From the NCBI RefSeq assembly GCF_000834055.1, contig NZ_JXSQ01000003.1:1-64000 (forward strand): a stretch of DNA of 64,000 bases. Direction: 5' to 3'. This document shows, piece after piece, positions 17,979 to 30,296 of the stretch; the first letter of the stretch is position 1, and every line of letters starts with the position of its first letter. Source of the stretch: Leucobacter komagatae. GTDB lineage: Bacteria; Actinomycetota; Actinomycetes; Actinomycetales; Microbacteriaceae. Both the position numbers and the translations under genes were made by a program. The notes beneath the pieces were generated by a model. That model ran no database searches. It was not told the origin of the DNA and was given only the letters and a program-made list of their open reading frames with translations.

Positions 17979-19814
17979 TTACGCTCCGTCGATCCGACGC
18001 TTGCGGGCGAGGGAGAGCCCGCCTACTCCGAGCGCGACGACGCCCGCGCCGATGAGGCCGAGCAGCAGCGGGGAGGCGCCGCCGGTCTCACTGAGTGGAT
18101 CGTTCGGAGTTGGCTTCCCCGGTGTGCCGGGGTTGCCAGGGCCGCCCGGATTGGTGGGGTTCGTCCCGATGTCCTTCTCAGCAACCTTCAGCGTGAATGT
18201 CTTCGTGTCAGTGCCGAATGTGTCGGTCACGCGCACAGTGAACGTGAACGTGCCTGCAACCGTCGGCGTGCCGCTCAGCTTGCCGGTCGCCGGGTCCAGG
18301 GTGATCCCGGCAGGGAGCCCTGATTCGCCGTCCTTTGGCACAACCTCCCACGCGAGGTCTGACTGACCGGTCGCAGTAATGACCGTTCCCGGGTATGCGG
18401 CGTTCACCTTGCCGTCGCTGAGCGGGCCTTCGAACGTGATGACCGGGCCCTGCACGACGATCTTTGCCGCATCGCTGAACCCGCTGAGGCCCCAGAAATC
18501 GTCATGCCAACGCACCCGATACTGCAGCGCAATTGCTGCCTCCGTCGCCACAACGTTCACCTGCTCGAAGGTCGCGCCAGGGATATCCGTCCAGTTCTCA
18601 CCGTCACTCGATGACTGCCAGAACACCCCGCCGGTGTGCCCTTGCTTGATGCCAACGGCGTCGATTTCGAAGCGTGCGGTGTCGCCGAGCGCACTGATGC
18701 TGACATCGGCAGGGTCAGTCGTGCTGGGGGTGTTAATGATCGAGACGGTGCTGCCCTTGGTAGCGTTCGTCCACCCAGCGTTCGCGGTGAGGAGCTCGCC
18801 TGTAGCGGGATTCTTGTCCACGGAGTACGGCGCGGTCGGCGTAGCCCGGAAGCTCTCCGAGCGGATCCCCGTTTCAAGATTCGCTGCCATCAGCTTGGTC
18901 CAGTACGGCACCGGACCGAATGCGCGGTTGAGATCGTCATATCCGACCGCGCCCGCCATGGGCGATCCCACCGCAGCGCGCGACTCGATCTCGCCTGATG
19001 CGGGGTTGAACACTCCGAGGGTCGCGCCGGCCGAGTCTGCGAAGTAGACCCGTTCGTCTGTGGTGTCGACCCTCATGAACGCGGTCGATGTCATGCCTGA
19101 CAGCGTGGCTTGCCCGATCACACTGAGGTCGCTCGTGTCGAGAGTGTAGATCGCGTTCTTGGAACCAACGAGCAGCTTGCTGTCGCCTTCGATGAGGGCG
19201 AGCCCGTCTGAGGACGTCCGCCCGAGCTCGGCCCGAGCGAGCTCGGTGCCCGTTGTCGCATCGAGCTTGAGGACGGTCCCGTCGATCCCGAGCACGTAGA
19301 TGGACGCGCCGTCGGCGGCGACCACGAGCTCCATGATGTTCTCTGGCACGTCGGTGAACTCCGCGAAGGTCACGCCGGCACTGAGATCGATGACGCTGAC
19401 CTGTGAGGTGTATTCCCCTTCGAGCGTGGCGAGGTAGGCGCGGGTGCCGTCGGGGCTCACGCGAATGGCCTCGTTGCCAGAGCCGGGGGTCGAGACCCGC
19501 TGAATGACCTCTCGGCTCGAGAGGTCAATGGTGACGATTTCGTTGAGCCACCGCTGCGAAACGTAGCCCAGACTGCCGTCGACTCCGGCGACGAAGTCGT
19601 TTGGCAGTGTTTCTTCGCCGATGAAGATGTCGGTTTGCAGGTCAGGGGTGAAGGTTGTCGATCCGTCACCGCCGGGAACTGATGGCTCCGCAGGGTCCTC
19701 TGGGCCGTCTGCGGCAAAGGCGGGCAGGGCGAGCCCCAAGGCGAGAACACCCCCGAGGATGCTGCCCGCGACGCCGAAGGCGCCCCGGTGTCGACGTGCT
19801 GTGCTGCTTCGCAT
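17979..19814 (-). CDS. Wall-anchored beta-propeller surface protein (paralog)
   Basis: This 611-residue paralog of the protein at 15696-17561 has the same order: signal peptide (LALPAFAAD), the FTPDLQTDIFIGEETLPNDF motif, beta-propeller repeats, WQSSSDGENWTDI, a He_PIG-type Ig domain (DPATGKLSGTPTVAGTFTF), a Gly/Pro-rich spacer, and the LSETG sorting signal with GASPLLL and an RKRR tail. I chose ATG 19814 (MRSSTARRHRG) because the signal peptide begins there; the frame runs open upstream to 20147, across the divergent promoter, and is implausible. The pair probably arose by tandem duplication and then diverged. It is divergent from a two-component system. Confidence 0.85.
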   Translation of the reverse strand: MRSSTARRHRGAFGVAGSILGGVLALGLALPAFAADGPEDPAEPSVPGGDGSTTFTPDLQTDIFIGEETLPNDFVAGVDGSLGYVSQRWLNEIVTIDLSSREVIQRVSTPGSGNEAIRVSPDGTRAYLATLEGEYTSQVSVIDLSAGVTFAEFTDVPENIMELVVAADGASIYVLGIDGTVLKLDATTGTELARAELGRTSSDGLALIEGDSKLLVGSKNAIYTLDTSDLSVIGQATLSGMTSTAFMRVDTTDERVYFADSAGATLGVFNPASGEIESRAAVGSPMAGAVGYDDLNRAFGPVPYWTKLMAANLETGIRSESFRATPTAPYSVDKNPATGELLTANAGWTNATKGSTVSIINTPSTTDPADVSISALGDTARFEIDAVGIKQGHTGGVFWQSSSDGENWTDIPGATFEQVNVVATEAAIALQYRVRWHDDFWGLSGFSDAAKIVVQGPVITFEGPLSDGKVNAAYPGTVITATGQSDLAWEVVPKDGESGLPAGITLDPATGKLSGTPTVAGTFTFTVRVTDTFGTDTKTFTLKVAEKDIGTNPTNPGGPGNPGTPGKPTPNDPLSETGGASPLLLGLIGAGVVALGVGGLSLARKRRIDGA

Positions 19815-19935
19815 GTGGCATTCACTTTCTCTGGTGGGGACTCGGGAAGTCACGTCTGAGGGGCGAATGCGCAGTCGTCGCGGGGTGAGCGGGACAGTGA
19901 ACAAGCTGCGGCAGGCATAACTTTGCCTAATATTC

Positions 19936-19963
19936 AGCATACGTAATAGATAGGGGACGGCAA
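19936..19963 (-). promoter_or_regulatory. Candidate promoter of second surface-protein gene
   Basis: On the minus strand TTGCCG (19963-19958) and TATGCT (19941-19936) are 16 bp apart in an AT-rich patch about 120 nt upstream of the surface-protein start. The spacing is right but the -35 is only partial. Confidence 0.35.
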
Positions 19964-19982
19964 AGGAAAAGTTACGCGGAGG

Positions 19983-20008
19983 CTCGCCTGCACTGCGGCG
20001 CAGGCGAG
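19983..20008. repeat. Stem-loop between divergent surface protein and response regulator
   Basis: CTCGCCTGC and GCAGGCGAG form a 9-bp perfect stem with an 8-nt loop, about 60 nt before the response-regulator start. It may be a structure in the untranslated leader or an operator dyad. The function is unknown. Confidence 0.35.
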
Positions 20009-20065
20009 ACGGTCTACCCTGGAAGAGTTGACGTACAACCCGACGCAGCCCGCAGAGAGTCAAAG

Positions 20066-20737
20066 ATGAAGATCCTGATCGTAGAAGACGACGCCCGCGT
20101 CGCCGAGGCTCTGAGCGCCTACCTCCGGCAGGCCGGCTACACCACACACTGGGTAGGCGACGGAACTTCCGCGATTGACGCTGTCGGGGCAGACACCGAA
20201 GCAGTCGTACTCGACCTCGGGCTGCCAGACATCGACGGCCTCGACGTCTGCAGACGCATTCGCGGGGTGAGTAACGTCCCCATCATCATCGCGACGGCAC
20301 GGAGCAACGTCGAATCGCGGATCAAGGGCCTGCACGCGGGGGCAGACGACTTCGTGGTGAAACCCTACGACGTTCGAGAGCTCATCGCGCGCATCGAAGC
20401 CGTGACCAGGCGCGCGCGGACGACAGCGCCAGCACCGGGGGAGAGCTCAAACCTCGAAATCGACGGCACCTACATTGATTTCGCGAACCGGCTCGTGCTC
20501 TCCGACGGCGTCAGCATCGAGCTCACGCCAAAGGAATTCGACATCCTTGCGGTGCTCGCAAGATACCCGGGCGTTGTCACCCCGCGAGACAGAATCATCC
20601 GTGAGGTCTGGGGAACGGACTGGACGGGGTTTAGCCGTTCGCTCGAGGTGCACGTCGCATCGATCCGCCGCAAACTCAACTGCCCGGCGCTCATCGCAAC
20701 CGTGCGCGGCGTTGGATACCGGCTGATGGGCGGATAG
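20066..20737 (+). CDS. OmpR-family response regulator
   Basis: This 223-residue protein has an N-terminal receiver domain with acidic pocket EDD near residue 8, phospho-acceptor Asp in AVVLDLGLPDIDGLDV and Lys in VVKPYDV. A C-terminal OmpR/PhoB winged helix follows (ELTPKEFDILAVLARYPG ... VHVASIRRKL). It is followed after 3 nt by its cognate kinase and, via overlap, by a TAXI lipoprotein. This suggests the three form one sensory unit. Phased CTCA repeats upstream of gluA (23143-23180) are a good candidate binding site. Confidence 0.93.
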   Translation: MKILIVEDDARVAEALSAYLRQAGYTTHWVGDGTSAIDAVGADTEAVVLDLGLPDIDGLDVCRRIRGVSNVPIIIATARSNVESRIKGLHAGADDFVVKPYDVRELIARIEAVTRRARTTAPAPGESSNLEIDGTYIDFANRLVLSDGVSIELTPKEFDILAVLARYPGVVTPRDRIIREVWGTDWTGFSRSLEVHVASIRRKLNCPALIATVRGVGYRLMGG

Positions 20738-20740
20738 CGC

Positions 20741-22150
20741 GTGCGCAGGCGACTGTTTGTGGTCTTCCTCGTCCCCACGACCATCATCCTGGTCATCCTT
20801 GGGGGAGCATACGGGTGGAGCGCAGCACGGAGCATCCAGCAGCAGGTCGCGACGCAGCTGCTCAGCGACCTCAGCTACTTCACGACCGGAGCTGGCCAAG
20901 CGCTCCGAGCGGGGGATCCCGCGATGATCGAGACGGAGCTGCGCCGCTACGGGATGCTCTATGACGCCGGGGTTGTCGTGTTCGACCGCTCTGGCACCGC
21001 GTGGGCCTCGGGTGCGCGCGTCCCCGCGCTGAGCGAGGGCGATGCTGAGCAGGTGAGCCTCGCGCTCTCCGGGAGGCGTGGAGAGCCTGTGGGGGACCTC
21101 CTGCCGTGGACAGCGAGCGAGCTCGTCGTCGTCGAGCCAGTCTTTGACGACGGCCGAGTCATCGGGGCGGTCAGAATCTCGGCGAGCACCGACGCGCCGC
21201 GGCGAGCGATCCTCACCCAGTGGGGCGCCATCGTCGGCCTGAGCGTCGTGATTATCATCGCGCTCGTGTGGGCGGTGTACCGGCTCGCGAGCTGGGTGCT
21301 CAAGCCGCTCAACCGGGTCGACAGCGCGATGGCTGCCATCGAGCACGGCGAGATGGGGGCGCGCATCGACGACGAGACCGGGCCGCCAGAAGTGCGGCGC
21401 ATGGTGCGCATGTTTAACCAGATGGCCGAGGAGATCGAGCGCGTCATGACCAGGCAACAGGAATTCGTGATGAATGCCTCGCACGAGTTGCGCAACCCGC
21501 TCGGGGCGCTCCTCATGCGAGTCGAGTATCTCGCAACGGGCCTCGACGAGGGGTGGATCGATGACGTCGAGCACGCGCGCGAGGAGGGGCGACGGATGAC
21601 ACGCATCCTCGACACGCTGCTGAGCGTCGCACGCGACGGGAAATCAGACTCGTCGTTCGTGGCGGTGGATCTCGCCGAGCTCGTCGAGGCGCGCGCCGCA
21701 GCCTGGCGTGAGCGCGCAGCCGACGGGTGGGTGGTGATCCACACGCACAGCGACGCTGACGCGTTGAGCGTCACGGATCGGATGGCGGTTGAGAGCGCGC
21801 TGGATGCGGTCATCGATAACGCGCTGAAATTCGCGCCCCGCGGCAGCGCGATCGACCTCACCGTTGCGCGCAGGGACGACGGGCACGCGGTCTCCGTCCG
21901 GGATCGGGGCCGCGGGCTCGAGCCGGAGCAGCTCGAACAGGCGACCGGCCGGTTCTGGCGAAGCCCGCAGGATCAAAACGTGCCAGGGTCGGGGCTTGGC
22001 CTCGCTATCGCGGCAGACCTGCTGCAGACGATGGGTGGAAATATCGTGCTCTCCTCACCGGCGAATGGCGGGCTTGAAGTCACGCTGTTGCTTCCGTCCA
22101 CCGATGCTGCGGGGGTATCCGCGGCGACACCCGAAGACGTCGATGCGTAG
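20741..22150 (+). CDS. Membrane sensor histidine kinase
   Basis: This 469-residue kinase starts at GTG. Membrane helix 1 is near residues 7-25 and a second near 163-185 (VGLSVVIIIALVWAVYRL), enclosing an extracytoplasmic sensor domain of about 135 residues. HAMP, HisKA (H-box MNASHELRNPLGALL) and HATPase domains follow (GSGLGLAIAADLL). The H-box has Asn where Thr is usual after Arg (HELRNPL), which occurs in some kinases and may affect phosphatase activity. It lies 3 nt after its regulator, and its last codons overlap a TAXI binding protein that could present ligand to the sensor domain. Confidence 0.93.
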   Translation: MRRRLFVVFLVPTTIILVILGGAYGWSAARSIQQQVATQLLSDLSYFTTGAGQALRAGDPAMIETELRRYGMLYDAGVVVFDRSGTAWASGARVPALSEGDAEQVSLALSGRRGEPVGDLLPWTASELVVVEPVFDDGRVIGAVRISASTDAPRRAILTQWGAIVGLSVVIIIALVWAVYRLASWVLKPLNRVDSAMAAIEHGEMGARIDDETGPPEVRRMVRMFNQMAEEIERVMTRQQEFVMNASHELRNPLGALLMRVEYLATGLDEGWIDDVEHAREEGRRMTRILDTLLSVARDGKSDSSFVAVDLAELVEARAAAWRERAADGWVVIHTHSDADALSVTDRMAVESALDAVIDNALKFAPRGSAIDLTVARRDDGHAVSVRDRGRGLEPEQLEQATGRFWRSPQDQNVPGSGLGLAIAADLLQTMGGNIVLSSPANGGLEVTLLLPSTDAAGVSAATPEDVDA

Positions 22151-23129
22151 GTGGGCGGGCGCAGGGCGCATCACCGGCCGCATCGGGGCGCGAGCGCTTG
22201 CTGTGCTGCTCACCCTTGTGCTCAGCGGGGCGACGCTCGCCGGCTGCAGCTCGGCGGTGCGCGACTCGGGCAGCCACCGCATCGCTGGTGGAGCATCGAC
22301 GGGGATCTACTACGCATACGGCGGCACACTCGCGGAGCACCTGCGCGACGTCGGCTTCGATATCGCCGTCGACGAAACCGGTGGGTCCGTCGACAACCTG
22401 CTCCGCGTCGGGCGAGGCGAGGCGATCCTGGGCTTCGCCCAAGCTGACGCGGCAGCAGACGCCGTCGCAGGGGTAGGGGCCTTCAGCGCCCCGCTACCAA
22501 TTGCCGGCGTCGCTCGCGTCTATGACGAGTACGTTCAGGTGGTCGTGAAAGCGGACGCCGAGGCAGAAAACATCTCAGACCTCGCGGGCTTGCGGGTCTC
22601 CATCGGGGAGGCAAACTCCGGTGTGACGGTGATCGCGGACCGCGTGCTCCGCGCCGCGGGCATCGACCACGAGGATTTTGTGCCGGTGACGCTCGGCATC
22701 GACGACTCAGTCGAGGCGCTCGCGCGCGGAGAGATCGATGCGTTCTTCTGGGTCGGCGGGGTCCCGACACCCGGCATCGAGACGCTGTCGAAGGGCACAC
22801 CGCTGCGGATCCTTCCGATCCGCCCTGAGACCGTCGAGAAGGTGAACTCTGGCCACGCCGGCGTGTATCGGCTGGCCGAATTCCCGCTCGGGGCGTACGG
22901 CACGGAGGCCGCAGTCGAGACGATGACTGTGCCGAACTACCTCATCACCTCTACGGACGCGCCAGAGCGGCTGGTGTTCGAAATCACCCAAACCCTGTTT
23001 GCCGCGCGCACCGATATTGCGCGGACGGTTCCCGCCGCAGCCCTGCTCGACAGGCGGCAGGCGATCTTCACGAGCCCCGTGCCGCTGCACCCCGGCGCGG
23101 CGGACTTTTACGTGAGCAGCCGCAGCTAG
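22143..23129 (+). CDS. TAXI-family solute-binding lipoprotein without TRAP permease
   Basis: This protein of about 328 residues has a lipobox (LAGC) near residue 35. The mature domain is typical of TAXI solute receptors: GGASTGIYYAYGGTLAEHL at its N-terminus, DNLLRVGRGEAILGFAQADA, SVEALARGEIDAFFWVGG and PNYLITSTDAPERLVFEITQ. The start is ATG 22143, overlapping the kinase gene by 8 nt. TAXI proteins normally feed a fused TRAP permease (DctQM), but none is present here. A TAXI structure from Thermus thermophilus was reported with bound glutamate/glutamine. With gluABCD 204 nt downstream, an accessory amino-acid sensor for the adjacent kinase is plausible inference. Confidence 0.85.
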   Translation: MRRWAGAGRITGRIGARALAVLLTLVLSGATLAGCSSAVRDSGSHRIAGGASTGIYYAYGGTLAEHLRDVGFDIAVDETGGSVDNLLRVGRGEAILGFAQADAAADAVAGVGAFSAPLPIAGVARVYDEYVQVVVKADAEAENISDLAGLRVSIGEANSGVTVIADRVLRAAGIDHEDFVPVTLGIDDSVEALARGEIDAFFWVGGVPTPGIETLSKGTPLRILPIRPETVEKVNSGHAGVYRLAEFPLGAYGTEAAVETMTVPNYLITSTDAPERLVFEITQTLFAARTDIARTVPAAALLDRRQAIFTSPVPLHPGAADFYVSSRS

Positions 23130-23142
23130 CTCCCACAGCGAA

Positions 23143-23180
23143 CCTCAAGAAACCTCAGCCCGATTCTCAAGAAAGCCTCA
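23143..23180 (+). promoter_or_regulatory. Four phased CTCA repeats upstream of gluA
   Basis: The spacer between the TAXI gene and gluA contains CTCAAGAAA at 23144 and 23166 (22 bp apart), each followed by CCTCA. Together the (C/T)CTCA units start at 23143, 23153, 23165 and 23176, a spacing of 10-12 bp. A weak -35/-10 pair (TGACTT near 23188, TAGCGT at 23211) follows immediately. OmpR-type regulators bind such phased direct repeats just upstream of -35, so this is a likely site for the regulator at 20066. Confidence 0.5.
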
Positions 23181-23332
23181 AATCCCGTGACTTGTGGGGT
23201 CCACCCTCACTAGCGTGTTGCTGATCGGTTCAAGGGCGAGCATCTCAAGCGCTCCTCGAACCAGGCAACCCAAGCAGTGTGCCGACGCAGCGCAGCCCGC
23301 GCTCGCGGTCAGGATCCAAAGGTGGAACATAG

Positions 23333-24079
<747 letters not shown>

Positions 24080-24132
24080 CCACAGGGGTGCCCACACCGG
24101 GCGTCCTTCATCCCAACCGAAAGGAACGCACT

Positions 24133-25050
24133 ATGCGATTCAAGAAAGCTTTCGCAACGGCCGGCCTCATTGCTGCGGCCGCGCTCGTACTGACCGGCTG
24201 CAACAGCGGCACCCCCGGCGCGACCGACGAGGGCGACGGCGGCACCACCGAGCCGACGACGTCGAGCAACCCCTGGACCGTTGCCGAGGACTTCACGCTC
24301 GAGGGCAGCCCAACGTTCGACAAGATCCAGGAGCGCGGCAAGGTCGTCATCGGCGTCAAGGAAGACCAGCCAGGCCTCGGATACTACGACAACGTCACCC
24401 AGGAGCGCTCGGGCTTTGACGTCGACATCGCCCGCTGGATCGCGGCATCGATCGGCTTCGACGAGAAGCAGATTGAGTACAAGGCGATCGCCTCGGCGAA
24501 CCGCGAGCAGGCGATCGTGAACGGCGACGTCGACTACTACGTCGGCACCTACTCGATCAACGACAAGCGCAAGAACGACATCGACTTCGCCGGCCCCTAC
24601 TTCATCACCGGCCAGGGCCTGCTCGTGCGTGTCGACGACACCGACTACCAGAAGCTTGAAGATCTGAACGGCAAGACGGTCTGCTCGGCGACCGGCTCGA
24701 CCCCGATCCAGAACATCAAGGACAACTTCAAGGAGATCAAGCCGCAGGAGTTCGACCTCTACTCGGCCTGCGTTGAGAACCTGGTGAACGGCCAGGTTGA
24801 CGCGGTCACCACCGACCAGGCGATCCTCATCGGCTACGCTGCGCAGCAGCCGGACGACCTCAAGGTCACCAGCGGCCCGGTCTTCACCGAGGAGCAGTAC
24901 GGCGTCGGCCTCGCAAAGGGCGACGACGTCTTCCGCGCACACATCAACGAGCTCTTCACCGATGGCGGCGACGTCTGGACGAAGATCTTCGACAACAACC
25001 TCGGCGACTCGGGCATCACGGTCGACCAGCCTGCGGTTGACGCGTACTAA
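24133..25050 (+). CDS. gluB: Glutamate-binding lipoprotein of ABC transporter
   Basis: This 305-residue family-3 solute-binding protein begins MRFKKAFATAGL with lipobox VLTGC near residue 25. The mature domain has the family signature (FDVDIARWIAASIGFDEKQI, KTVCSATGSTPIQNIK, VDAVTTDQAILIGYA). I chose ATG 24133, with AAGGA eight bases upstream, over the ATG at 24088, which would put 15 hydrophilic residues before the signal peptide. Glutamate (or related polar amino acid) specificity is inferred from gene order and family resemblance. A strong hairpin follows the gene. Confidence 0.92.
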   Translation: MRFKKAFATAGLIAAAALVLTGCNSGTPGATDEGDGGTTEPTTSSNPWTVAEDFTLEGSPTFDKIQERGKVVIGVKEDQPGLGYYDNVTQERSGFDVDIARWIAASIGFDEKQIEYKAIASANREQAIVNGDVDYYVGTYSINDKRKNDIDFAGPYFITGQGLLVRVDDTDYQKLEDLNGKTVCSATGSTPIQNIKDNFKEIKPQEFDLYSACVENLVNGQVDAVTTDQAILIGYAAQQPDDLKVTSGPVFTEEQYGVGLAKGDDVFRAHINELFTDGGDVWTKIFDNNLGDSGITVDQPAVDAY

Positions 25051-25095
25051 CCCGCGGTAGGCGCGCACCCTCGCGTGCGCGCACTCTGCACTAAT

Positions 25096-25124
25096 GTTCG
25101 GGGGCGGCCAGCCCGCCCCCGAAC
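25096..25124 (+). terminator. Intra-operon hairpin between gluB and gluC
   Basis: GTTCGGGGGCGG and CCGCCCCCGAAC form a perfect 12-bp GC-rich stem with a 5-nt loop in the 98-nt gap. Such hairpins after binding-protein genes usually stabilise the upstream message or partly terminate, so that the binding protein is made in excess over the permeases. Confidence 0.55.
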
Positions 25125-25148
25125 GTCATCTTCACAGAAGGAAGACGA

Positions 25149-25805
25149 ATGGACGTCATCTTCGGGAACCTGGATCTCTGGGGGATCGCGATCAGGAACA
25201 CGCTGCTCGTGTTCGCCGCCGGCGGGGCCATCGCGCTCGTGCTCGGCATGATCGTCGGGGCCATGCGTGTTTCGCCCGTGCCCATCGCGCGCGGCGTCGG
25301 CACGGTGTACGTGAACATCATCCGTAACACACCACTGACGCTCGTGTTCTTCTTCTTCGTGCTCGGCTACCCGGCGCTCGGCTTCGGACGCGTAAACCTC
25401 ACGGTGCTCGGCATCGCCGCGATCGGCGTCTACACCGCCACCTACGTCGCAGAGGTCATCCGGGCCGGCATCAACACCGTCCCAGTGGGTCAGGCGGAGG
25501 CTGCACGAGCGATCGGGCTGCCGTTTGGGCAGGTCATGACCAGCGTCGTGCTTCCCCAATCATTCCGCTCGGTCGTGCCCCCAATGATGAGCGTCTTCAT
25601 CGCCCTGCTCAAGAACACCACCGTCGCAGCCGGCTTCTCGATCGCCGAGCTCGCCCAGCTTCGCGCAGCGATCAACGACTCCGGTGACCGGCCAGGCAGC
25701 CCCATGGAGGTTCTCCTCTGGGTCGCAGCCGTGTTCATCGCCATGGTGATGCTGCTCAGCCTCGTACAAAACCGGCTCGAGAAGAAATGGAGGATCGCGC
25801 GATGA
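25149..25805 (+). CDS. gluC: Glutamate ABC transporter permease
   Basis: This 218-residue permease of the His/Glu/Gln class has about five hydrophobic segments. The coupling loop is QAEAARAIGLPFGQVMTSVVLPQSFR. The N-terminal motif IRNTPLTLVFFFFVLGYPAL is typical for GluC-type subunits. The start follows GGAAG, and its stop overlaps the gluD ATG. It should pair with GluD to form the membrane channel. Confidence 0.92.
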   Translation: MDVIFGNLDLWGIAIRNTLLVFAAGGAIALVLGMIVGAMRVSPVPIARGVGTVYVNIIRNTPLTLVFFFFVLGYPALGFGRVNLTVLGIAAIGVYTATYVAEVIRAGINTVPVGQAEAARAIGLPFGQVMTSVVLPQSFRSVVPPMMSVFIALLKNTTVAAGFSIAELAQLRAAINDSGDRPGSPMEVLLWVAAVFIAMVMLLSLVQNRLEKKWRIAR

Positions 25806-26725
25806 CCACCTCAGTGCTCTACGACGTCCCCGGCCCGAAAGCGATCCTGCGCAACCGCATTCTCGCGGTCCTCACGATCCTCGTGGTCGGCGGGCTGATC
25901 GCATTCGTGCTCTACCGCTTCTACCTCACCGGCCAGTTCACGGCCCAAAAGTGGGGCCTGTTCACCTACGCGTCGATCTGGGAGCAGATTCTCGCGGCCC
26001 TCGGCAAGACGCTCGCGGCCTTCGCTGTCGCGGCTGTGTTCAGCCTCGTGCTCGGTCTCGTGCTCGCCATCGGGCGGCTCTCAGACCACGCATGGGTGCG
26101 GATTCCCGTCACGACCGTGACAGAGCTGTTCCGTGCCATGCCCGTGCTCATCATGATGATGCTCCTGTACTACGGACTTCCGTCAGTCGGGATCAAGATG
26201 GACCCGTACTGGGCCGTCGTGATCGCCCTCGTCGCCTACAACGGGTCAGTGCTCGCCGAGGTACTCCGAGCGGGCATCGAGTCCCTCTCGAAGGGGCAGA
26301 AGGAGGCCGGCTACGCGATCGGGCTGCGTAAGAGCGGCGTGATGCGGCTCATCCTCATGCCACAGGCCATCCGCGCCATGCTTCCGGTGATCATCTCCCA
26401 GCTCGTCGTGACCATGAAGGACACCGCGCTCGGATTCATCATCACCTACCCAGAGCTGTTGTACCTTGCGAAGCAGTTCAGCAGCAACGTCCAGTTCGGC
26501 AGGCCGCTCTTGCAGTCCGCGTTCGTCATCGGCGGCATCTACATCCTGATGTGCTTTATCCTCTCCGGCGTCGCGCAACTCGTGGAGCGGCGACTCCGCA
26601 GCAGCTCGCGGGGCCAGTCTGGCGAGGCGACACCGACAGGCACCGTTCCCGTGCAGCCGGACGATCCGCGCATGCACGAGGGTGGGACCGTTACCGAGGT
26701 ACTCTCGGTGCAGCGGAAACGATAG
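25802..26725 (+). CDS. gluD: Glutamate ABC transporter permease
   Basis: This permease of about 307 residues starts at ATG 25802, which overlaps the gluC stop as ATGA with GGAGG about nine bases upstream; an ATG at 25787 would add five residues. It has about five membrane segments and the coupling loop KEAGYAIGLRKSGVMRLILM followed by PQAIR. The C-terminal 45 residues are hydrophilic and Gly/Arg/Pro-rich, longer than usual for the class. A strong terminator follows, closing the operon. Confidence 0.92.
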   Translation: MTTSVLYDVPGPKAILRNRILAVLTILVVGGLIAFVLYRFYLTGQFTAQKWGLFTYASIWEQILAALGKTLAAFAVAAVFSLVLGLVLAIGRLSDHAWVRIPVTTVTELFRAMPVLIMMMLLYYGLPSVGIKMDPYWAVVIALVAYNGSVLAEVLRAGIESLSKGQKEAGYAIGLRKSGVMRLILMPQAIRAMLPVIISQLVVTMKDTALGFIITYPELLYLAKQFSSNVQFGRPLLQSAFVIGGIYILMCFILSGVAQLVERRLRSSSRGQSGEATPTGTVPVQPDDPRMHEGGTVTEVLSVQRKR

Positions 26726-27879: not shown

Positions 27880-28935
27880 CTATGCCACAGCCCGGTGTCT
27901 CCAGGTTGCGTCCTGCACCTCACCGATGAGTTCCTCAACGATGTCCTCGAGAAACACGATGCCTGTGGCCACGCCGTGAGCGTCGGTGACCCGAGCGAGG
28001 TGGCTGCCGTCCGAGCGCATCTGCGCGAGGGCATCCTCGAGATCGAGCGAGGCTGGCACGTCCGCGAGTGCGCGCAGCCTAGTCTGGGGGATCGGTTCGT
28101 CGCGCTGCTCGGCTGAGCCGAGGTCGAGCACGTCCTTGAGGTGCACGTAGCGTGCGGGGGCACCGTCGGGCGCAGCGAGCACGAACCTGGAGAAGCCGTG
28201 GGCGGCGACGGCGAGCTGCACGTCCCTCGGGGTCGCAGCAGCTGGCAGCACGACGAGCTCGCTGAACGGCAGCTCGACCTCCGCCGCCGTCTTCTCGGTG
28301 AAGTCGAACGCCGCCGACACCGTGCCGGACGCATCGACGAGGGTGCCCTCAATCGTCGACTGCTCGACGATGTTCGCGACCTCGTCGAGCGTGAACGCGC
28401 TCGTTGCCTCATCCTTCGGTGTCACGCGGAAGAGCCGGAGGATGCTGTTTGCGACCCAGTTCAGCGCCCGGATGAGCGGGCTCACGATCTTCGAGACGAA
28501 CACGAGCGGGGGAGCGAGCAGCAGCGCCGCCCGGTCGGGCACGGAGAACGCCATATTTTTCGGGATCATCTCACCGAACACGACGTGCAGGAATGTGACG
28601 AGGGCAAGCGCAACACCGAAGGCAACGCCCGTGACCATCGCAGGGGTGAGGCCGGTCCAGGCGAGCGGCACCTCGAGAATGTGCTTGATCGCCGGCTCAG
28701 AGACGTTCAGGATGAGCAGCGAGCAGACGGTGATGCCGAGCTGGCTCGTTGCGAGCATGAGGGTGGCGTGTTCCATCGCCCACAGCGTGGTCTTCGCTGA
28801 GCGGCTTCCCGCGGCTGCCCGCGGTTCGATCTGGGATCGGCGGGCGGAGATCACCGCGAACTCTGCGCCAACGAAGAACGCGTTCAAGGCGAGCAGCACA
28901 AACAGCCAGACCAGGCCGGGCACGTATTCGCTCAT
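27880..28935 (-). CDS. CNNM/DUF21 plus CBS-domain membrane protein, short form
   Basis: This 351-residue protein has an N-terminal DUF21/CNNM membrane domain with three to four hydrophobic segments (VWLFVLLALNAFFVGAEFAV) and the EMIPKNMAFSVP motif. Two CBS domains follow. It ends after the second CBS domain and so lacks the CorC_HlyC domain that its upstream neighbour has. It overlaps that neighbour by 4 nt, so they are probably translated together and may form a heteromeric Mg2+/Co2+ efflux or transport complex. The activity is inferred from the family. Confidence 0.88.
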   Translation of the reverse strand: MSEYVPGLVWLFVLLALNAFFVGAEFAVISARRSQIEPRAAAGSRSAKTTLWAMEHATLMLATSQLGITVCSLLILNVSEPAIKHILEVPLAWTGLTPAMVTGVAFGVALALVTFLHVVFGEMIPKNMAFSVPDRAALLLAPPLVFVSKIVSPLIRALNWVANSILRLFRVTPKDEATSAFTLDEVANIVEQSTIEGTLVDASGTVSAAFDFTEKTAAEVELPFSELVVLPAAATPRDVQLAVAAHGFSRFVLAAPDGAPARYVHLKDVLDLGSAEQRDEPIPQTRLRALADVPASLDLEDALAQMRSDGSHLARVTDAHGVATGIVFLEDIVEELIGEVQDATWRHRAVA

Positions 28936-30296
28936 CGGGTTGCCTCCGCGTGATCAGTGTGTGTGGTCGCCGATTGCCGGGGCGTGCCGGTGCTGGTGTG
29001 GGGGGTGAAGCGGAGCAGTGCGAGGCGGGCACCGGTCATCGCCTCGACGCGCAATGCGCCCGCCTCAATATTGACTTCTTCGCCGACGTCGGGAATGCGT
29101 TCGAGCGTTGCGAGGAGGAACCCAGCCACGGTCTCGTAGTCGTCACTTTCTGGCACGCGGATCTTCGCCCGCGACCACAGCTCGTCTGGCCGCAGCGCCG
29201 GGTTGAAGAGAACGGACTCGCCCTCGGAAACGATGTCGCCCGTGAGCGCTGCTGGGTCGTCGTGTTCGTCGAGTAGCTCGCCGAGGAGCTCCTCGATGAG
29301 GTCTTCGAGCGTGACAATGCCGGCGGTGCCGCCGTGCTCGTCGACGACGACCGCGATTTGGTAGCCGCGCCCGCGGAGCATGCCGAGCAGTGTGTCGGCG
29401 CCGGCCGATTCTGGCACGCGCAGCAGTTCGGATGTGATTGCCGTGATTGGCGTCTCTGCGCGGCGCTCGTCGGCGACCGCGTAGGCGGCCTTGACGTGCG
29501 CGATGCCGATTACGTCGTCGATGTCGTCGGCAAAGACTGGGAAGCGCGAGTGGCCCGTCTCGATCGAGGCGGAGATCACGTCGCCGGCGCTCGCCGTGTT
29601 GGGGAGGAACGCGACGCGCACGCGTGGCGTCATGACCTCGTCCGCGGTGCGTGAGGAGAACGTGAGCGTGCGGTGGAGCATGTCGGCATCGTTTTCGTCG
29701 AGCAACCCCTCGGTCGCCGACCGGCGGATGAGGTACCCGAGCTCTTCAGCGCTGCGGGCGGCCGACAGCTCCTCCTTTGGCTCAATGCCGAAGGAACGGA
29801 TCACGCGGTTCGCAGTCCCGTTGAAGAACATGATGATGGGGCGCAAGAGGAACGTGAAGGCGAGCTGGAATGGCACGACGATCTTCGCGGTCGCGAGCGG
29901 GACGGCCAGCGCGAAGTTTTTCGGTACGAGCTCGCCGACGATCATCGAGAACAGCGTGGCTAAGACGATCGCTACCACCGTGCCGACAGCGGATATGAGC
30001 CCCTCTGGCACGCCGAGGTCGCCGAGCGGCTCACGGAGGAGCGAGCTGATGGCAGGCTCAAACGTGAAGCCGGCGAGCAGGGTGGTGAGCGTGATGCCGA
30101 GCTGTGCACTCGAGAGGTGGGTCGAGGTGACCCGCAGCGCCGAGATTGTCGGGCGGAGCCCCTTCTCGCCCTGCGCCTGGCGACGCTCAAGGTCGCTGCG
30201 GTTGAGGTTGACGAGGGCGAACTCGGAGGCCACGAAGAATCCCGTGCCAACCGTGAGGAGCACGCCGATGACGATGCCCCAGAAGTCGGTGATCAA
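28932..30296 (-). CDS. CNNM/CorC family protein with CBS and CorC_HlyC domains
   Basis: This 454-residue protein has a DUF21 membrane domain (about residues 1-190, with GELVPKNFALAVP), two CBS domains including DEHGGTAGIVTLEDLIEELL, and a C-terminal CorC_HlyC domain of about 80 residues (PDVGEEVNIEAGALRVEAMT). Such proteins take part in Mg2+/Co2+ homeostasis. It is the first gene of a two-gene operon with the short form at 27880. An AT-rich dyad is found about 55 nt upstream of the start. Confidence 0.9.
   Translation of the reverse strand: MITDFWGIVIGVLLTVGTGFFVASEFALVNLNRSDLERRQAQGEKGLRPTISALRVTSTHLSSAQLGITLTTLLAGFTFEPAISSLLREPLGDLGVPEGLISAVGTVVAIVLATLFSMIVGELVPKNFALAVPLATAKIVVPFQLAFTFLLRPIIMFFNGTANRVIRSFGIEPKEELSAARSAEELGYLIRRSATEGLLDENDADMLHRTLTFSSRTADEVMTPRVRVAFLPNTASAGDVISASIETGHSRFPVFADDIDDVIGIAHVKAAYAVADERRAETPITAITSELLRVPESAGADTLLGMLRGRGYQIAVVVDEHGGTAGIVTLEDLIEELLGELLDEHDDPAALTGDIVSEGESVLFNPALRPDELWSRAKIRVPESDDYETVAGFLLATLERIPDVGEEVNIEAGALRVEAMTGARLALLRFTPHTSTGTPRQSATTHTDHAEATR

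What the first reader, a model, noticed from the sequence alone, without database searches (positions are those of the whole stretch)
20066..26725. Two-component system, orphan TAXI lipoprotein and glutamate ABC transporter as one sensory-uptake unit
Seen: response regulator, kinase and TAXI lipoprotein overlap or nearly touch, with no TRAP permease. gluABCD follows 204 nt later, preceded by four CTCA units spaced 10-12 bp directly upstream of a weak promoter. Known: TAXI receptors can bind glutamate/glutamine; extracytoplasmic binding proteins can present ligand to sensor kinases; OmpR-type regulators bind phased direct repeats. Inference: the TAXI protein acts as the ligand co-receptor of the kinase, and the regulator switches gluABCD on when glutamate-like ligands appear. 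A TAXI protein used only for sensing would be a little-described arrangement.
Basis: partly seen in the sequence, partly recalled or inferred. Interest (0 to 1): 0.72.

Follow-up and report, generated by a model that had tools for sequence, protein, structure and literature searches.

The report
Glutamate sensor with dedicated binding protein
A bacterial switch that probably turns on glutamate uptake is encoded together with a lipoprotein that looks like a transporter's binding protein but appears to be used for sensing, an arrangement seen across many actinobacteria and beside several unrelated transporters.

Summary
In detail: RR (20066-20737), HK (20741-22150), TAXI lipoprotein (22143-23129) and gluABCD (23333-26725), with four CTCA units before gluA. 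The regulator/transporter half resembles known Streptomyces GluR-GluK/gluABCD. The CTCA repeats are very probably an operator: an 11-bp tandem is there in 36 of 36 Leucobacter regions, 21 of 21 further, mostly Microbacterium, loci and 34 of 37 Streptomyces-type regions, and in 0 of 12 Leucobacter genomes that keep a relative of one linked transporter without HK and TAXI. TAXI follows the kinase: both present in 36, both absent in 18 of 54 Leucobacter genomes. Related RR-HK-TAXI sets stand beside ABC, MFS or TRAP transporters; five TRAP loci carry a second TAXI. The window TAXI keeps four glutamate contacts of VcGluP; MFS-linked TAXIs mostly lose two of them. Its genome shows no TAXI-type TRAP set and no GltS. 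Best reading: a dedicated TAXI receptor feeding the kinase. TAXI-kinase contact is inferred, not shown. Reported direct glutamate-GluK interaction, and neighbouring SBP-kinase pairs that did not interact elsewhere, count against it.

The parts
20066..20737 (+). OmpR/PhoB-type response regulator (GluR-like)
   Evidence: PF00072 + PF00486; relatives 59-90% identical in the same position in Leucobacter loci
20741..22150 (+). HAMP sensor histidine kinase (GluK-like) with a small extracytoplasmic bb-a-bb sensor region, about residues 29-158
   Evidence: PF00672/PF00512/PF02518; model; sensor alignable in the 94 TAXI-linked kinases compared
22143..23129 (+). orphan TAXI lipoprotein; start codon inside the kinase gene; lipobox LAGC; glutamate-site residues Y56, S82, Q100, E129
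   Evidence: TIGR02122 242 bits; AF2 pLDDT 90.5, best matches include Glu-bound TAXIs; residues
23144..23181 (+). proposed regulator operator: four CTCA units at 23144, 23154, 23166, 23177
23188..23216 (+). proposed gluA promoter core: TGACTT, 17 nt, TAGCGT
   Evidence: same geometry in 26 of 36 regions
23333..24079 (+). gluA, ABC ATPase
   Evidence: PF00005; nearest NCBIfam GlnQ, below its cut-off
24133..25050 (+). gluB, family-3 amino-acid binding protein
   Evidence: PF00497
25149..25805 (+). gluC permease
   Evidence: PF00528
25802..26725 (+). gluD permease (start taken by homology)
   Evidence: PF00528

Best explanation
This is a GluR-GluK-type glutamate uptake switch with a dedicated sensory TAXI protein. 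Proposed steps: (1) glutamate in the envelope closes the TAXI lipoprotein (inferred from pocket and fold); (2) closed TAXI docks on the small extracytoplasmic sensor of the kinase made from the overlapping gene (inferred); (3) the kinase phosphorylates the OmpR/PhoB-type regulator (family knowledge); (4) the regulator binds 11-bp CTCA direct repeats just upstream of the -35 of gluA and activates gluABCD (operator shown by comparison; activation inferred, and reported for S. coelicolor in reviews). TAXI takes no part in transport; GluB serves the transporter. The RR-HK-TAXI trio is a plug-in module that other lineages place beside an MFS or TRAP transporter, with the TAXI pocket changed.
For: HK and close TAXI (47% or more) are jointly present in 36 and jointly absent in 18 of 54 Leucobacter genomes (in G035 the TAXI is cut by a contig end). 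12 of the 18 keep a transporter related to the second linked type, with no TAXI, HK, RR query match in the stretch and no CTCA tandem (0 of 12). HK-TAXI overlap of 8, 4 or 1 bp in 30 of 36 loci. Operator conserved. TAXI pocket: Y45/S75/Q93/E125 equivalents kept in 36 of 36; Q becomes L in 14 of 15 and E becomes N in 13 of 15 MFS-linked TAXIs. Tree: 18 TRAP-linked TAXIs plus 2 unassigned lie apart from all 65 TCS-linked ones (SH-aLRT 99). Two-TAXI loci L072, L139, L211, L213, L233. No TAXI-TRAP set and no GltS found in the genome. The 16 of 396 genomes with a sensor-domain match at 1e-30 or better each have a non-TRAP TAXI. Precedent: citrate-bound BctC signals through BctE (PMC5812351, passages).
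Against: No TAXI-kinase contact was computed or measured. A review says GluK of S. coelicolor interacts with glutamate by biolayer interferometry (PMC9739842, passage), so a co-receptor may be unnecessary. Three SBPs encoded near Pseudomonas kinases AgtS/AruS showed no interaction with them (PMC11113362, abstract). Window-type GluB (72-100%) was seen only in genomes that have HK and TAXI (30 of 30), so for this exact transporter TAXI and transport are not separated. The kinase sensor has an Arg-Arg pair kept in every row of both glutamate classes and lost in most MFS-linked kinases, which fits direct ligand sensing as well. In the Streptomyces class Q becomes A in 9 of 10 and E becomes D in 10 of 10; Q to L and E to N are also common in TRAP-linked TAXIs (8 and 10 of 18), so they are not special to MFS loci. 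In Streptomyces TAXI is not within 1 kb of HK in 29 of 150 genomes by my reading. 32 of 48 genomes with a sensor-domain match (the weaker ones) are not among the 38 with a TAXI match.
Confidence: 0.62

Rival explanations
1. The kinase binds glutamate directly through its small sensor domain; TAXI is a helper (local glutamate trap, or a brake released on ligand binding) and is not the receptor.
For: GluK-glutamate interaction reported by BLI (review passage); Arg112-Arg113 kept in both glutamate-linked classes, lost in most MFS-linked kinases; weak sCache_3_2 match, E 0.0077, below cut-off; sensor-domain relatives without a TAXI match in other classes.
Against: TAXI kept with HK in 36 of 36 Leucobacter genomes and found in 150 of 150 Streptomyces genomes; TAXI pocket differs between transporter classes.
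Confidence: 0.24
2. TAXI is an extra uptake protein that hands glutamate to GluCD or to another permease.
For: Same gene cluster; TAXI proteins usually serve transport; TAXI-GltS shows they can change partners (PMC12344293, passages); window-type gluABCD was not seen without TAXI.
Against: gluABCD has its own GluB; the second linked transporter type lives without TAXI in 12 genomes; related trios stand beside MFS symporters, which as a rule need no SBP; five TRAP loci keep a second TAXI; no GltS.
Confidence: 0.08
3. TAXI is an old neighbour kept for another envelope function and has nothing to do with this signal.
For: Neighbouring SBP and kinase genes are not always linked in function (PMC11113362, abstract).
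Against: Matched presence and absence, overlapping genes, and repeated association across genera with different transporters.
Confidence: 0.06

Closest known systems
GluR-GluK / gluABCD of Streptomyces coelicolor (Li et al. 2017, not held; seen through reviews PMC9739842, PMC10345050, PMC9518994, passages only)
   Same: OmpR RR plus transmembrane HK beside gluABCD; RR acts on a motif upstream of gluA; CTCA-N7-CTCA tandem in 34 of 37 Streptomyces-type regions and 36 of 36 Leucobacter regions
   Different: Window genes are co-directional in one cluster, not divergent, and a TAXI gene overlaps HK. A TAXI also adjoins HK in most Streptomyces genomes examined, but the review passages I read do not mention it. 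S. coelicolor itself was not examined.
BctC-BctDE of Bordetella pertussis (PMC5812351, passages)
   Same: Extracytoplasmic binding protein plus two-component system controlling a transporter
   Different: BctC is a TctC-family SBP that also feeds BctBA; here the TAXI appears separate from the transport SBP
LuxP-LuxQ (PMC8534201, passages)
   Same: Binding protein relays a ligand to a kinase sensor domain
   Different: Quorum signal and tandem PDC sensor (passages); a binding protein of another family (recalled)
VcGluP and TtGluBP TAXI proteins (PMC11574862, passages; PDB 8s4j, 9ibo, 1us4)
   Same: Fold (TM-score on target 0.87) and the Y/S/Q/E glutamate contacts
   Different: VcGluP is a TRAP component; for the window TAXI no TAXI-TRAP permease was found
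TAXI-GltS of B. pertussis (PMC12344293, passages)
   Same: TAXI without a TRAP permease
   Different: Partner there is a symporter; here probably a kinase, and no GltS in the genome

Membership tests
GluR-GluK/gluABCD system | OmpR-type RR and HK adjacent to gluABCD | tested here: met
GluR-GluK/gluABCD system | RR site upstream of gluA | tested here: inconclusive
   the same 11-bp CTCA tandem stands there in Leucobacter and Streptomyces-type loci, but identity with the published GluR motif could not be checked, paper not held
GluR-GluK/gluABCD system | TCS divergent from gluABCD | tested here: not met
   co-directional in the window; a variant arrangement, so filed as GluRK-like, not as GluRK
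GluR-GluK/gluABCD system | activation by glutamate | not testable with these tools
   -
TAXI protein family | TIGR02122 over cut-off and TAXI fold | tested here: met
TAXI protein family, glutamate type | VcGluP Y45, S75, Q93, E125 equivalents | tested here: met
   36 of 36 class rows; binding itself not measured
TAXI-TRAP transporter | fused DctQM permease partner | tested here: not met
   none found in the genome; dctPQM has its own DctP
TAXI-GltS transporter | GltS partner | tested here: not met
   no PF03616 match in the genome
SBP-assisted two-component system (Bct type) | SBP contacts the kinase sensor | not testable with these tools
   no complex prediction offered
SBP-assisted two-component system (Bct type) | SBP gene kept with the kinase gene | tested here: met
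   36 of 54 genomes have both, 18 neither, none one alone

The most novel reading that the evidence does not exclude
Actinobacteria hold a family of two-component systems whose ligand receptor is a stand-alone TAXI Venus-flytrap protein used only for sensing. The RR-HK-TAXI trio is exchanged between ABC, MFS and TRAP transporters, its specificity reset by changes in the TAXI pocket, and each RR reads its own 11-bp tandem in front of the transporter it serves.
Probability: 0.5. Interest if true: 0.8.

Novelty: new variant of a known kind. Interest (0 to 1): 0.68.

Why it matters
GluR-GluK is studied as a plain two-component system in Streptomyces; if a TAXI protein is the real or joint receptor, the signal-input model there needs revision. 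TAXI proteins are treated as transport parts; a sensing-only branch would explain many orphan TAXI genes in actinobacteria and give a clean model for how a binding protein is separated from transport and turned into a receptor. The operator and pocket predictions can be tested directly.

Tried and rejected
Considered and set aside: TAXI as a TRAP part; TAXI-GltS; chance CTCA repeats; a natural HK-TAXI fusion in L043 (frame change near the HK C-terminus in an 89%-complete genome, most likely an assembly error); further regulator sites in the genome (CTCAAG-N5-CTCAA with up to one mismatch: 18+20 matches against 28+24 for the control), so no wider regulon is claimed; a sensor-fold hit for the kinase (the Foldseek rows shown are mostly kinase cores; pTM 0.39).

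Seven of the 29 loci L182-L210 have the contig lengths of genus-search loci (L182, L183, L184, L187, L195, L198, L205) and are not independent; the 27 named and 10 unnamed Streptomyces-type loci may overlap too. The Streptomyces adjacency figure (121 of 150 within 1 kb; of the other 29, one without an HK match, five on another contig, 22 at 2-26 kb, one at about 1.5 Mb) is my reading of the coordinate lists, best TAXI match per genome; 30 of 30 loci tested by script had TAXI adjacent, these being the 30 best HK matches. The TAXI tree is the quick kind with SH-aLRT only, and the window row itself was not in it. TRAP and MFS labels were set by tblastn with query proteins; only some were checked in Pfam. 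Two loci labelled TRAP (L109, L135) also have distant RR/HK matches (27-32%) nearby, and L150 has RR-HK beside a TAXI in two pieces next to a TAXI-TRAP. L214 and L222 hold a TAXI-TRAP pair and a further TAXI with no RR/HK match. In one search there were 45 match rows; I fetched long regions for 33. Left out before counts: L070 from tree and residue counts; L043, L060 and L070 from the kinase comparison; TAXI matches under 200 residues.
Full report
What is there. The window (C3:1-64000 of a 3.67-Mb, 62-contig genome) carries, on one strand, an OmpR/PhoB-type regulator, a HAMP histidine kinase, a TAXI lipoprotein and an amino-acid ABC transporter gluABCD. RR and HK are 3 nt apart; the TAXI start codon lies inside the kinase gene (8-bp overlap), a sign of translational coupling.

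Gene order is conserved. Of 54 genomes of the genus, a close TAXI (47% or more identical) is in 36 and the window-type kinase (E <= 1e-90) in the same 36; 18 have neither (in G035 the contig ends inside TAXI). Of 36 fetched loci (L036-L071), 35 run HK-TAXI-gluA and on, with RR in front except in L036, whose contig begins after it; L070 ends at a contig end after a broken TAXI. Six of the 35, from five genomes, carry a diverged transporter (GluB 42-44%, GluC 44-46%) in the same place. HK and TAXI overlap by 8, 4 or 1 bp in 30 of 36 (the other six come from start choice, stops or a frameshift, or a true small gap), and each TAXI listed has a lipobox, the automatic one for L057 being false but with a real one behind it.

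The same set in other genera. A named-genome scan kept the best 80 loci (context): 29 with RR-HK-TAXI and, where the contig goes on, gluABCD (Leucobacter, Microbacterium, Microcella, MAGs; L189 is cut before gluA; seven repeat genus-search contigs), 27 of the Streptomyces/Kitasatospora/Yinghuangia/Pseudonocardia type (TAXI converging on HK-RR, gluABCD divergent; TAXI 2-3 kb from HK in L225, L239, L242), 4 with an MFS transporter, 3 with a TRAP set that has a second TAXI, 3 with kinase and TAXI but no transporter seen (L212, cut, L215, L241), 9 plain TAXI-TRAP, 2 TAXI-TRAP with a further TAXI and no TCS (L214, L222), 3 others or cut. In the genus of G076 (Streptomyces by size and by the named loci) 149 of 150 genomes have the kinase and 150 of 150 a TAXI; the 30 best kinase loci all have TAXI next door, and by my reading 121 of 150 genomes have it within 1 kb.

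The regulator half is known. Reviews describe GluR-GluK of S. coelicolor (SCO5778/79) beside gluABCD (SCO5774-77), GluR binding a motif upstream of gluA, wide distribution in Actinobacteria, and glutamate interacting with GluK by biolayer interferometry (passages of PMC9739842, PMC10345050, PMC9518994). The primary paper is not held. The passages I read mention no TAXI.

The CTCA repeats look like an operator. A CTCAA tandem spaced 10-12 bp is in 36 of 36 Leucobacter TAXI-gluA regions (shuffle mean 0.06, maximum 1), all 36 with an 11-bp pair, and in 2 of 36 stretches of 200 nt upstream of RR (L059, L071). One search finds it in 28 of 28 loci of L182-L210 that reach gluA, 21 of them not repeats of genus-search contigs. 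Streptomyces-type RR/gluA regions have CTCA-N7-CTCA on the gluA strand in 34 of 37 (shuffle mean 0.085, maximum 2), 0 of 37 on the other strand; the three without it are the Pseudonocardia loci L239, L255 and L257. In 26 of 36 Leucobacter regions the last unit stands 10-11 nt before TGA[CGA], itself 22-23 nt before TAnnnT, the geometry of PhoB-like activation at the -35 (family knowledge). In 12 of the 18 Leucobacter genomes that lack HK and TAXI, a transporter 69-77% identical in GluB to the second linked type persists (a 13th, G046, has a weaker GluB match that was not fetched). There no RR, HK or TAXI query match and no CTCA tandem was found (0 of 12). The operator thus goes with the regulator. 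Against: window-type GluB (72-100%) was seen only where HK and TAXI are present (30 of 30). An own-genome scan showed no excess of such sites, so no regulon is claimed.

TAXI goes with the kinase more than with a transporter. Related RR-HK-TAXI trios stand beside MFS symporters (15 loci: L073, L074, L117, L122, L125, L130, L140-L147, L151; and L218, L221, L234, L235). Of five MFS proteins scanned, four are nearest NCBIfam PRK10406, below cut-off, and one the aromatic-acid symporters; I recall PRK10406 as the alpha-ketoglutarate permease group. MFS symporters as a rule need no binding protein. Others stand beside a TRAP set with a second TAXI (L072, L139; L211, L213, L233). On a tree of 86 TAXIs, 18 TRAP-linked ones plus 2 unassigned lie on one side of a branch (SH-aLRT 99) and all 65 TCS-linked ones on the other; the two TAXIs of L072 and of L139 fall on opposite sides (quick method). 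In 11 Leucobacter MFS loci the RR/MFS region has a different 11-bp tandem, GT[AT]AAG-N5-GT[AT]AAG, 11 of 11, with 0 of 36 and 0 of 37 in the glutamate classes. The module therefore appears transporter-agnostic, each RR with its own tandem.

Ligand. The TAXI model (pLDDT 90.5) is closest to TtGluBP and VcGluP structures, among them glutamate-bound ones. The VcGluP contacts (PMC11574862, passages) map to Y56, S82, Q100, E129, with W203 for Y200 and V204 for M201. Y, S, Q and E are kept in 36 of 36 class rows. MFS-linked TAXIs change the amino-group contacts (Q to L 14 of 15, E to N 13 of 15), as would suit a ligand without an amino group; but L and N are also common in TRAP-linked ones (8 and 10 of 18). 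Streptomyces-type ones have Q to A in 9 of 10 and E to D in 10 of 10. Binding was not measured.

The kinase sensor. The model gives long helices around a small bb-a-bb domain (pTM 0.39). It aligns in the 94 kinases compared (34 Leucobacter, 37 Streptomyces-type, 18 MFS, 5 TRAP), with Pro122-Trp123 (83% or more in each class) and Pro133 (100%) nearly constant; Arg112-Arg113 is kept in all 34 and 37 rows of the two glutamate classes and mostly lost in the MFS class, which fits direct glutamate contact or an interface. Phylum-wide, of 396 genomes, 48 match the sensor profile at 1e-12; the 16 that match at 1e-30 or better also match TAXI, each in a non-TRAP context, while the 32 weaker ones are not among the 38 with a TAXI match. 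Six of the 16 gave rows to the profile, so the strong group is favoured by construction. G127, the one further class member with TAXI, has a TAXI-TRAP.

No other partner at home. The window genome has one TAXI over cut-off; weak further matches are on C1 and on C12 (32%, residues 16-201, near an ABC ATPase match). It has one clear TRAP set, dctPQM with its own DctP, and no GltS match.

Reading. Shown by comparison: the unit, its conservation, a regulator-linked tandem, TAXI tied to HK, a glutamate-type pocket. Inferred: glutamate binding, TAXI-kinase contact, activation order. Precedents are BctC-BctE (PMC5812351, passages) and LuxP-LuxQ (PMC8534201, passages); the warning is that three SBPs near Pseudomonas kinases showed no interaction (PMC11113362, abstract). 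Searches for a TAXI working with a two-component system found no report in the listings I saw (listings were capped); most subscription papers are not in the library.

Noticed in passing
L070 (G018:C1 end): Second copy of RR-HK-TAXI at a contig end, with an interrupted TAXI frame; an intact copy is on contig C2.
   Followed up: no
L112-L120, L136-L138: Many Streptomyces-type TAXIs begin with what looks like one membrane anchor without a lipobox cysteine, while several MFS-linked TAXIs begin with SRR...C signals that look like twin-arginine lipoproteins (by eye).
   Followed up: no
L073, L074, L140-L147, L151, region between RR and MFS gene: An 11-bp tandem GT[AT]AAG-N5-GT[AT]AAG in 11 of 11 loci, different from the CTCA tandem of the glutamate class.
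   Followed up: partly
L037 and L043: Kinase gene with an internal stop (L037) and kinase reading into TAXI in one frame after a frame change (L043); either draft errors or decay.
   Followed up: no
window 17979-20147, minus strand: Secreted-looking protein ending in LSETG plus a membrane segment and RKRR, like a sortase-anchored surface protein, divergent from the regulator gene (by eye).
   Followed up: no
L148, L149: RR-HK-TAXI sets with no MFS, TRAP or gluBCD query match in 11 kb, only a distant ABC ATPase match.
   Followed up: no
L214, L222: A TAXI-TRAP pair with a further TAXI about 3 kb away and no RR/HK query match: a second TAXI without a kinase.
   Followed up: no
window 28932-30296 and 27880-28935, minus strand: Two neighbouring membrane-protein ORFs that look by eye like CBS-domain (CorC/HlyC-like) proteins; not scanned.
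   Followed up: no
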